A stretch of DNA of 23,060 bases from a virus: positions 1 to 23,060 of IMG/VR virus record IMGVR_UViG_3300020472_000182. One strand, 5' to 3'. The notes beneath the pieces were generated by a model. That model did not search any database, was not told the DNA's origin, and saw only the letters and a list, made by a program, of their open reading frames with translations. Positions 1,136 to 3,245 of this stretch are shown here, one piece after another (positions within the stretch are counted from its first letter, which is position 1; every line of letters starts with the position of its first letter). A program made the translations under genes and the position numbers.

Positions 1136-1164
1136 AGTATACTATGTATTAGAGCGTTTGTCAA
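1136..1164 (-). promoter_or_regulatory. Sigma-70-type promoter (TTGACA, 17 bp, TATACT)
   Basis: Read on the minus strand, a perfect -35 box TTGACA (complement of 1159-1164) is followed by exactly 17 bases and a -10 box TATACT (complement of 1136-1141), five of six matches to TATAAT. The -35 overlaps the stop codon of the 133-aa gene. The expected start of transcription is near 1129, giving a leader of about 18 nt to the ATG at 1111. The -35 sits inside a small inverted repeat (1154-1167) and the -10 inside AGTATACT, so a repressor or hairpin could act here. This is probably an early promoter read by the host polymerase. Confidence 0.8.
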
Positions 1165-1562
1165 CGCATGTAGAGATATCCACCCGCCCAGTCAGCATTT
1201 GCTATTAAATACTCACGATCTTTGATAAGTCTGAGATCATAGCGTACATGCTTTGCTGGAGACTTCCAACCCGCTGGTTTGTACACTTGACCAGTCTTCT
1301 TATCAATGAATGCGTGAACACTACGCTGATTGTTAACCATCACAATCTTGTGATACTTGCGACCAGACTCTATAACGAAGTCATAGTCGCATACACCTGA
1401 CTTAAGTTCATTAATTCTATCAACATGGTACTTACTGTTACCATCTTGAACAATTGATCTCTCATGATACCTGACTGAATCATTGATGTAGTTCTGCTTG
1501 AGTGCATCACATAACTCTTGAGTGTGAGTGAGTATGTTTTCAGTGATTGTTGCGGTGGTCAT
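1161..1562 (-). CDS. Conserved cyanophage-type protein, 133 aa, function unknown
   Basis: The most distinctive part is the C-terminal half: FIDKKTGQVYKPAGWKSPA (residues 85-103), then VRYDLRL and a terminal NADWAGGYLY. From memory, this signature recurs in small proteins of many cyanophages with no assigned role. The N-terminal 60 residues look helical, and the middle looks like beta strands (KYHKIVMVNNQRSVHAFID). No signal peptide or membrane span is seen. The gene stands alone: about 94 bases separate it from the gene upstream, with a weak -10-like TATACT at 1587-1592 and a strong hairpin at 1621-1647. Its TGA at 1161-1163 overlaps the -35 of the next promoter. Conservation is likely; function is unknown. 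Confidence 0.8.
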   Translation of the reverse strand: MTTATITENILTHTQELCDALKQNYINDSVRYHERSIVQDGNSKYHVDRINELKSGVCDYDFVIESGRKYHKIVMVNNQRSVHAFIDKKTGQVYKPAGWKSPAKHVRYDLRLIKDREYLIANADWAGGYLYMR

Positions 1563-1987: not shown

Positions 1988-2157
1988 CAGTTTGATGCAG
2001 TTGGGGGTGATGGTAGACAGTTTGATAACTGGTTGTAAAGTGTCCCATCATCCACAGATTTGTGGTAGAAAGGTTGTGTATCTGATTGCATCATCATATC
2101 CATTATAAATCGGATCTGAGATGTCGTTAGATTAACTTGGGTAGTCTGTTCAATCAT
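1987..2157 (-). CDS. Small protein, 56 aa, function unknown
   Basis: The frame opens at the ATG of 2155-2157, which overlaps the methyltransferase TGA (ATGA), and ends at TGA 1987-1989, which overlaps the next ATG (TGATG). It is therefore linked to genes on both sides. The product begins MIEQTTQVNLTTSQIRFIMD, with a run MDMMMQ, and has a middle (FYHKSVDDGTLYNQL) like other small cyanophage proteins that pair a 'T..Q..FI' start with a 'Y.QL' segment. It has one cysteine and no membrane segment. The exact fit between two genes is the strongest evidence; function is unknown. Confidence 0.65.
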   Translation of the reverse strand: MIEQTTQVNLTTSQIRFIMDMMMQSDTQPFYHKSVDDGTLYNQLSNCLPSPPTASN

Positions 2158-3104
2158 AAGTGGTTCAGGATGCTTGTAGACGCTTTTGAAGGGGTTACAG
2201 GAAGTGTTTCTATTCTCTTTTGAATTAGATCACCATAATTCTCATGTAATTCACACCCAATATAATGTCTATCGAGTGATTTTGCAACTGTTGCAGTTGT
2301 ACCACTGCCCATGAATGGATCAAGTACAGTGTCACCCTTTTCACTACCAGCAAGGATACATGGTTTGATCAGTTCTTCAGGATACGTAGCGAAGTGTGCT
2401 CCCTTGTATGGTTTCTTGTTTACCGTCCAGACAGAGCGTTTATTGCGTTTTGTATATGATTTTGTAAGACCTGAATGCGGTTGGAGTCCTGTTCCTTCGT
2501 TGTGGTACTTTCCTTTTGATCTGTCTCTTGTTCCCCAGTCTTTTGCTGGTTCTTTGATTGCTTCATTGTCATAGTGGTAATACTTACTCTTACTCAAGAG
2601 AAAGATATACTCATGAGACTTTGTACATCTATCTCTTACACTCTCTGGCATAGGGTTTGGTTTATGCCATATAATATCTTGTCTTAGATACCAACCATCC
2701 GCACGTAATGCAAATGCAAGCATCCAAGGTATACCAATCAGATCCTTATCCTTATATCCTTGGAGTTTGTTAGATCTTCTTGGTGTAGTCTTAGGTAGGT
2801 CTTGTCTATTAGCAGAGAATGTCTGCTTAGGTATACACCCATCCTTTCTATAGTTATAATAACTGTCACCAATGTTCAACCATAGTGTACCATCTTCCGT
2901 GAGTACATTGCGTACCTTGCGGAATACCTGTACCATCTCTTGAACATATTCTTCTGGTGATTGCTCTTGTCCTATCTGGTCATCCTCACCACCATAGTCT
3001 CTTAGACCATAGTAAGGTGGAGAAGTAACACACATCCTTGCACTCTCTGGTAAGAAAGCATCGAGTGTATCACGACAATCTCCAAATAGAATAGTATCTT
3101 GCAT
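2154..3104 (-). CDS. Orphan DNA methyltransferase, beta-type (N4-cytosine or N6-adenine)
   Basis: This enzyme transfers a methyl group from S-adenosylmethionine to an exocyclic amino group in DNA. Catalytic motif IV is TSPPYYGLRDY at residues 27-37, followed by DGTLWLNIGDSY (71-82). SAM-binding motif I, DPFMGSGTT, lies at 262-270, with YIGCE after it. This IV-then-I order is the beta group, and SPPY is most common in N4-cytosine enzymes though not exclusive. Residues about 180-235 probably form the target recognition part. Length (316 aa) is normal for the family. I chose the ATG at 3102-3104; the longer frame would need a TTG inside the leader. No restriction gene is nearby, so it is an orphan, plausibly protecting phage DNA from host restriction or marking it for regulation. 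A structured leader and TTGACA promoter precede it. Confidence 0.9.
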   Translation of the reverse strand: MQDTILFGDCRDTLDAFLPESARMCVTSPPYYGLRDYGGEDDQIGQEQSPEEYVQEMVQVFRKVRNVLTEDGTLWLNIGDSYYNYRKDGCIPKQTFSANRQDLPKTTPRRSNKLQGYKDKDLIGIPWMLAFALRADGWYLRQDIIWHKPNPMPESVRDRCTKSHEYIFLLSKSKYYHYDNEAIKEPAKDWGTRDRSKGKYHNEGTGLQPHSGLTKSYTKRNKRSVWTVNKKPYKGAHFATYPEELIKPCILAGSEKGDTVLDPFMGSGTTATVAKSLDRHYIGCELHENYGDLIQKRIETLPVTPSKASTSILNHL

Positions 3105-3210
3105 GTTTAAAAAATTGGTGGAGGAAAACAAAACTAAGGGTCAATGCATTACCCCAACGGTCATGTGTCTGCTTCTAAGTCAGACTAGTCGGGAACTCGT
3201 TTGTTTTCCT
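3105..3210 (-). ncRNA. Structured 5' leader of the methyltransferase mRNA (candidate cis-regulatory RNA)
   Basis: The predicted transcript starts near 3210. Its first 11 bases (minus strand of 3200-3210, AGGAAAACAAA) are perfectly complementary to bases at 3122-3132, about 18 bases before the ATG. Inside this closing stem lie two smaller hairpins: GTCTG/CAGAC with a nine-base loop (3167-3185), and GGGT/ACCC around AATGCATT (3138-3154). A run of six T's (minus strand) sits just before the ATG and no Shine-Dalgarno is visible. The layout suggests an RNA element that controls translation or transcript end. It matches no riboswitch class I know, and the pairing is by eye only. Confidence 0.4.
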
Positions 3211-3213
3211 GTA

Positions 3214-3245
3214 AGTATAATGACATAGGTTTAACTATTTGTCAA
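3214..3245 (-). promoter_or_regulatory. Sigma-70-type promoter ahead of the methyltransferase
   Basis: The minus strand reads TTGACA (complement of 3240-3245), identical to the -35 boxes at 1159-1164 and 6297-6302. Two overlapping -10 candidates exist: CATTAT after a 17-base spacer (complement of 3217-3222), and the better TATACT after 20 bases (complement of 3214-3219). The first has ideal spacing, the second a better hexamer. Transcription would begin near 3207-3210, the start of the 11-base arm of the leader. The promoter lies just after the stop of the 187-aa oxygenase gene. Confidence 0.6.

What the first reader, a model, noticed from the sequence alone, without database searches (positions are those of the whole stretch)
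3105..3245. Structured 5' leader of the methyltransferase, closed by an 11-bp stem from the transcript's 5' end
The predicted 5' end (AGGAAAACAAA) pairs perfectly with 3122-3132, bringing the 5' end next to the ribosome-binding region. Two inner hairpins (3167-3185, 3138-3154) and a T6 tract before the ATG complete a compact fold. No known riboswitch matches. It may time methyltransferase synthesis, perhaps by host RNase or a phage protein opening the stem.
Basis: partly seen in the sequence, partly recalled or inferred. Interest (0 to 1): 0.6.

Follow-up and report, generated by a model that had tools for sequence, protein, structure and literature searches.

The report
Sealed, nested leader RNA of cyanophages
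The leader in front of this phage methyltransferase gene belongs to an apparently undescribed family of folded RNAs that sit at the very start of many marine cyanophage messages, tuck the message's first letters into a stem, and swap or nest folded domains like Russian dolls.

Summary
Its 93 nt (window 3210-3118, minus strand) are 95.7% identical to a stretch of Prochlorococcus phage P-SSM7 that lies behind the methyltransferase, not in front of it. Pattern scans gave 120 distinct copies with a paired P3 stem in marine viral contigs. The outer 11-bp stem (P1), an unnoticed stem (P2) and the 3167-3185 hairpin (P3) covary (covariation score 0.432; shuffles 0.172). Rfam 15 has no match.

P1 starts 6-8 nt behind a TATAAT-like box in most copies and usually closes 17-35 nt before a start codon. 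The downstream genes are mixed: ssDNA-binding protein, unknown genes, oxygenase, and this methyltransferase in 3 close relatives. The P3 loop accepts other folded modules, and one module occurs both inside this RNA and around it. No terminator or start-codon occlusion was found.

Most likely it is a cis-acting leader that seals the transcript 5' end against RNase E-type decay. The role is inferred, not shown.

The parts
3217..3245 (-). Promoter-like site TTGACA-17-CATTAT; the -10-like box ends 6 nt before the 5' strand of P1
   Evidence: consensus match only. In relatives a TATAAT-like box (up to 1 mismatch) lies 5-9 nt before P1 in 49 of 71 distinct copies. The window's own box has 2 mismatches and is not among the 49.
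3118..3210 (-). Whole RNA element: match to covariance model R2, 99.5 bits, model positions 1-92
   Evidence: The window copy (as L085) is one of the 30 sequences the model was built from.
3200..3210 (-). P1, 5' strand (AGGAAAACAAA), predicted 5' end of the transcript
3122..3132 (-). P1, 3' strand (TTTGTTTTCCT)
   Evidence: 6 of 11 P1 pairs have changes on both sides in A2
3188..3194 (-).
   Evidence: 96.7% of cells paired, 6 of 7 pairs with changes on both sides
3152..3158 (-). P2, 3' strand (GTTGGGG)
3181..3185 (-). P3, 5' strand (GTCTG)
   Evidence: and (68 of 71 viral pattern hits have a complementary stem; control 1 of 11)
3167..3171 (-). P3, 3' strand (CAGAC)
3172..3180 (-). P3 loop ACTTAGAAG. 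AC and GAAG are conserved; the UUA between is replaced by inserts of up to 131 nt in relatives
3161..3166 (-). Conserved ACAUGA internal-loop strand (ACAUUA in P-SSM2); facing UA at 3187-3186
3149..3152 (-). Conserved GUAA directly behind P2
   Evidence: a GUAA-like string in 115 of 116 copies with enough sequence
3117..3121 (-). Unpaired CCACC just 3' of P1; a CAC here is common in relatives
   Evidence: CAC within 7 nt after P1 in 49 of 65; background 51 of 635 windows
3105..3116 (-). U-rich spacer (with T6 at 3114-3109) to the start codon
   Evidence: 17 nt from P1 to ATG
2154..3104 (-). DNA methyltransferase gene (316 aa, ATG at 3104)
   Evidence: phrog_67, E=3.8e-78

Best explanation
The leader is a member of a cyanophage-specific structured RNA family that forms the first ~93 nt of a transcript. 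Shown by computation: three covarying helices with conserved internal loops; an outer stem that starts at the predicted transcription start and closes just before the start codon; varied downstream genes; a terminal loop that accepts other folded modules. Inferred: it acts in cis as a sealed 5' end. The first nucleotides are kept base-paired, which denies RNase E (and RppH) the single-stranded 5' end they need, so the phage message lives longer in a host whose RNase E is induced during infection. The conserved internal loops probably bind a further, unknown host or phage factor that tunes this. The methyltransferase is one of many genes that use the leader.
For: Covariation: 93.9% paired, score 0.432 against 0.172 shuffled and at most 0.154 slid. 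P3 test not chosen on pairing: 68 of 71 distinct viral hits of GACTTAGAAGCNNNNACATGA have four complementary Ns (9 distinct stems), against 1 of 11 bacterial-genome hits. Anchoring: a -10-like box (up to 1 mismatch) lies 5-9 nt before P1 in 49 of 71 copies; hits fall at 52 over those 5 positions and 15 over positions 10-39. When another module is outermost, its own stem is sealed the same way: outer partner 9-10 of 10 in 14 of 15, box at 5-8 nt in 12 of 15. New transcription units: terminator-like signals upstream in 23 of 98 (shuffled 2.9), downstream 2 of 98 (shuffled 3.9). Start-codon accessibility 0.60 with leader, 0.60 without, 0.50 shuffled. P1-to-start distance 17-35 nt in 26 of the 37 copies with a recognised start. 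Papers: PMC9692554 passages: cyanophage P-SSP7 raises host RNase E, and antisense RNAs are said to protect phage transcripts. PMC3997798: reference titles only, on RNase E control by 5'-terminal base pairing in E. coli.
Against: No half-life, start-site or probing data exist here. A plain hairpin would seal a 5' end; the conserved internal loops (ACAUGA, GUAA, AC/GAAG) call for more than sealing. Of the 19 copies with GAGAAACA or GAGAGACA stems, 14 have TATAGT abutting P1 and fit the spacing rule only if another box is used; the window's own -10 has 2 mismatches. In 11 of 37 copies the start codon lies 91-314 nt away, with further modules between in those I read. Calculated energies do not favour P2: it is better in 16, worse in 13 and tied in 1 of 30. 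Only 4 of 15 genomes searched have a copy, so it is not essential. PMC9692554 concerns a T7-like cyanophage, not these T4-like ones.
Confidence: 0.42

Rival explanations
1. A riboswitch or protein-operated leader: the conserved internal loops around P2 bind a metabolite or a phage protein and so control translation or elongation of the gene behind.
For: Conserved unpaired nucleotides flank a marginal helix (P2) that is kept by covariation although calculated energies are nearly neutral. wcaG and manA, structured RNAs in potential 5' UTRs of cyanophages, set a precedent. A subset precedes gp32-like ssDNA-binding protein genes (10 of the 104 with a called ORF); T4 gene 32 has an autoregulatory leader (recalled).
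Against: No expression platform found: terminator-like signals downstream 2 of 98, shuffled 3.9; start region as open with as without the leader. The alternative hairpin that would compete with P2 is not conserved. The genes have no common pathway.
Confidence: 0.27
2. A put-like RNA that acts on RNA polymerase as it leaves the promoter and makes it read through terminators.
For: Fixed position at the transcript start, independence from the gene behind, start of new units.
Against: No excess of terminators just downstream. The put comparison is recalled, and its two-hairpin form was not compared.
Confidence: 0.09
3. A separate small RNA acting in trans, with the downstream gene incidental.
For: Own promoter and compact fold. 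In S-SSM4 the next annotated feature is a tRNA gene, about 150 nt downstream.
Against: No terminator behind it; a start codon 17-35 nt behind P1 in 26 of 37 copies.
Confidence: 0.09
4. A self-cleaving ribozyme that cuts near the conserved CAC behind P1 and leaves the mRNA with a 5'-OH.
For: Conserved internal-loop nucleotides, free terminal loop, conserved CAC just outside the closing stem.
Against: CAC is missing in 16 of 65 copies. No known ribozyme family matches.
Confidence: 0.06
5. The family is not functional RNA but a mobile DNA repeat whose palindromes happen to fold.
For: The element and its inserts move between loci; mobile hairpin elements are known to sit in RNA loops (recalled).
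Against: Compensatory changes in three nested helices, conserved loops and fixed promoter spacing.
Confidence: 0.04

Closest known systems
wcaG and manA RNA motifs (Rfam RF01761, RF01745)
   Same: Structured RNAs in potential 5' UTRs of T4-like cyanophages and marine metagenomes (passages of PMC2864571).
   Different: No covariance-model match in any tested copy. Different gene set; no nesting reported in the passages I read.
5'-terminal stabilising stem-loops (ompA, papA leaders)
   Same: Transcript 5' end closed in a stem; proposed to limit RNase E access (reference titles seen; details recalled).
   Different: Those are single genes' hairpins as far as I recall. This one is a widespread family with a conserved multi-loop core and swappable modules.
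T4 gene 32 translational operator (recalled)
   Same: A folded leader; a subtype here lies in front of gp32-like genes.
   Different: Here it is a long rod without a shown pseudoknot, found before many unrelated genes; autoregulation untested.
HK022 put RNA (recalled)
   Same: Folded RNA directly behind promoters.
   Different: No sequence or structure comparison made; antitermination untested.

Membership tests
Rfam 15 families (incl. wcaG, manA, PhotoRC-II, glnA) | Match to the covariance model | tested here: not met
   0 matches up to E=1 for the window region, L099 leader and P-SSM2 leader; 0 at gathering score over 18 loci, 103,574 bases
5'-terminal stabilising stem-loop leaders | 5' end base-paired at or within a few nt of the transcription start | tested here: met
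   By prediction only: -10-like box 5-9 nt before P1 in 49 of 71 and 5-8 nt before the outer stem in 12 of 15 nested cases. No measured start site.
5'-terminal stabilising stem-loop leaders | Longer mRNA half-life that depends on the stem | not testable with these tools
   needs decay measurements
Riboswitch | Conserved aptamer-like fold in a 5' leader | tested here: met
Riboswitch | Expression platform (terminator, or occluded start region) | tested here: not met
   purine-rich ribosome-binding motifs are rare in this phage anyway (2 of 22 window genes)
Riboswitch | Specific ligand binding | not testable with these tools
   needs probing
put-type antiterminator RNA | Position directly at the transcript start | tested here: met
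   (predicted starts)
put-type antiterminator RNA | Terminator read-through | not testable with these tools
   needs reporter
Trans-acting sRNA | Own terminator | tested here: not met
   2 of 98 downstream, shuffled 3.9
T4 gp32 operator | Restricted to gene 32 leaders | tested here: not met
   10 of 104 copies with a called ORF

The most novel reading that the evidence does not exclude
Cyanophages build the 5' ends of their messages from a shared stock of small folded RNA domains that insert into each other's loops in either order (matryoshka leaders), while two outer rules stay fixed: the outermost stem starts at the first transcribed nucleotide and usually closes 17-35 nt before the start codon. 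This would be a combinatorial RNA-domain system that acts as a 5' cap substitute or a multi-input sensor.
Probability: 0.3. Interest if true: 0.9.

Novelty: new variant of a known kind. Interest (0 to 1): 0.74.

Why it matters
If right, some abundant marine phages carry an undescribed RNA family at the start of their messages, and it can be tested in isolates (P-SSM7, P-SSM2, S-SSM4). It would give a cis-acting answer to how cyanophage messages survive host RNase E that is raised during infection, beside the antisense protection already proposed for P-SSP7 (passages of PMC9692554). The reciprocal nesting of modules would be a natural example of RNA evolving by domain insertion into loops.

Tried and rejected
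Tiny conserved upstream ORF (AUGA...UAA in the core): rejected by inspection, because the AUG-to-UAA spacing varies among copies and the frame is not kept (alignments).

Ribosome-binding-site sequestration: 20-nt upstream stretches of 22 window genes show a purine-rich motif in only 2, so its absence here is normal for this phage. Start-codon accessibility does not depend on the leader.

Alternative hairpin 3138-3154 competing with P2: below shuffles.

Mimicry of the 23S rRNA GTPase-associated centre (CUUAGAAGC; recalled): not pursued, because the UUA of the loop is replaced by long inserts in relatives.

Host origin: a scan of 84,980 bacterial and archaeal genomes gave 11 hits, none cyanobacterial by title; 1 of 11 has the stem.

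Model R1 missed P1 because the aligner shifted it; R2 has P1 by a structure that I gave. Its alignment still shifts some rows by one column.

Dropped rows: A1 used 23 of 24 deduplicated copies; A2 used 30 of 33 listed copies. The 120 copies were chosen for P3 pairing, so P3 support in A2 is partly circular; one search is the test without that choice. P1 ends in A2 were chosen with end motifs, so P1 support is partly helped too. 16 of 120 had no ORF called. One search dropped 5 truncated copies.

Full report
What was checked. The window is a 23,060-base virus record. The methyltransferase gene runs on the minus strand from ATG 3104 to 2154 and matches phrog_67, DNA methyltransferase. The leader is therefore a minus-strand RNA. 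A promoter-like TTGACA-17-CATTAT ends at 3217. The 11-bp stem (3210-3200 with 3132-3122) and the 3185-3167 hairpin are present. The single-sequence fold is not outstanding (z -1.34; 19 of 200 shuffles as good), so relatives decide.

Relatives. A distant BLASTN of the leader region found a 94-base stretch at 95.7% identity in P-SSM7 and an 89.5% match in S-SSM4. In P-SSM7 it lies directly behind the methyltransferase and before another gene, so the unit that is conserved is the leader, not the leader-gene pair. Model R2 matches 98 places in 100 loci and 57 in another 100 at E up to 0.05; some are the training copies, and overlapping contigs are counted more than once.

Structure. On 30 copies, P1, P2 and P3 are 93.9% paired. 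15 of 23 pairs have changes on both sides; the score is 0.432 against 0.172 in shuffles, and 0.05-0.15 when one strand is slid. Because the copies were selected for P3 and trimmed by P1 end motifs, a test without pairing in the choice matters: of 71 distinct viral hits of GACTTAGAAGCNNNNACATGA, 68 have fully complementary Ns, with nine different stems; of 11 hits in bacterial and archaeal genomes, 1 does. P2 is kept by covariation although calculated energies are about neutral (better in 16, worse in 13, tied in 1 of 30). Conserved unpaired strings are UA and ACAUGA between P2 and P3, AC and GAAG in the P3 loop, and GUAA behind P2.

Position. In 49 of 71 distinct copies a TATAAT-like box (up to 1 mismatch) ends 5-9 nt before P1; per position this is about 10 hits against 0.5 at positions 10-39. 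Exceptions: 14 of the 19 copies with GAGAAACA or GAGAGACA stems have a TATAGT abutting P1, and the window's own box has two mismatches. Terminator-like signals lie upstream in 23 of 98 copies (shuffled 2.9) and downstream in 2 of 98 (shuffled 3.9). In 37 copies with a recognised start, the distance from P1 to the start codon is 17-35 nt in 26 and 91-314 nt in 11. Long cases that I read carry further modules in between: P-SSM2 and cases with the peptide module. Start-codon accessibility is 0.60 with the leader, 0.60 without it and 0.50 with a shuffled one, over 26 copies.

Genes. Of 120 copies, 104 had an ORF called downstream. Clusters: 31 (phrog_1987), 13 (no PHROG), 11 (phrog_818), 10 (single-strand DNA binding protein, phrog_224), 7, 6, 5, and 3 with this methyltransferase. 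ORF calling is mechanical and some starts are wrong. Among 80 loci fetched by methyltransferase homology, 10 carry the RNA; from the coordinates none has it directly before that gene. Of 15 phage genomes searched (14 cyanophages, 1 Pelagibacter phage), 4 have one copy each (P-SSM7, P-SSM2, P-SSM5, S-SSM4).

Modules. 45 copies carry P3-loop inserts of 14 nt or more (up to 131). They fall into recurring modules: one BLAST-linked cluster of 16 inserts sits in 10 backbone contexts and another of 5 in 5. One module (GGTTCC...GCCCC...GGGGGTTCAGG) occurs inside the P3 loop (L234, L251, L275) and, in 15 other copies, around the core. When it is outside, its own outer stem pairs with a 3' partner 9-10 of 10 in 14 of 15, and starts 5-8 nt behind a -10-like box in 12 of 15. 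In the L099 fold the core sits inside this module. So either domain can hold the other, while the seal at the transcript start stays.

Known RNAs. Rfam 15: no match. Papers on cyanophage RNAs name CfrI, PhotoRC-II, wcaG, manA and glnA (passages of PMC9964418, PMC9602691, PMC10665884, PMC2864571). I found no description of this family in searches. The library lacks most subscription papers, and I read passages, not whole texts.

Mechanism. The fixed features are the sealed 5' end, its place at the start of a new transcription unit and the nearness to a start codon that stays open; the gene behind varies. That fits 5'-end protection. RNase E control by 5'-terminal pairing is known in E. coli (reference titles seen in PMC3997798; mechanism recalled), and a cyanophage raises host RNase E during infection (PMC9692554, passages). 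The conserved internal loops argue for an extra, unknown binding partner. None of this is measured.

Noticed in passing
L301 2038-2090 (P-SSM2) and 24 other distinct contexts listed: A leader module with GAGGAG-AUGGAUG encodes an invariant start peptide MDVPLGSQPKKELTS followed by different tails. A few letter changes are synonymous, and some look compensatory in a small hairpin, so it may be both peptide and RNA.
   Followed up: partly
L301 1982-2034; L088; L241; P3 inserts of L210, L216, L226, L241, L249: Module GCAAGGATCTATGG...CAGCAGAGAAATTACGTCCTGTAAGTC occurs both as a tandem unit behind this RNA and inside its P3 loop. No Rfam match in the P-SSM2 leader.
   Followed up: partly
L263, L225, L286, L206 P3 inserts: Second-order nesting: a module with TTAATTAGACT...AGTTAGGATAG appears inside another module that itself sits in the P3 loop.
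   Followed up: no
window 1161-1562 (-): This ORF shares the VHAFIDKKTG.VYKPAGW motif with the phrog_818 family, whose members follow the RNA in 11 other loci; here the gene has no such leader (one search finds only one copy in the record).
   Followed up: no
L089, L092, L124, L134, L142, L147, L152, L163, L165, L169: A subtype with short P1 (CUGGG/CCCAG) and CCACG-type P3 stands before gp32-like ssDNA-binding protein genes in 10 loci.
   Followed up: partly
window 3171-3179 (-): CUUAGAAGC resembles the 1067 loop of 23S rRNA (recalled). It looks accidental, since relatives replace the UUA by long inserts.
   Followed up: no
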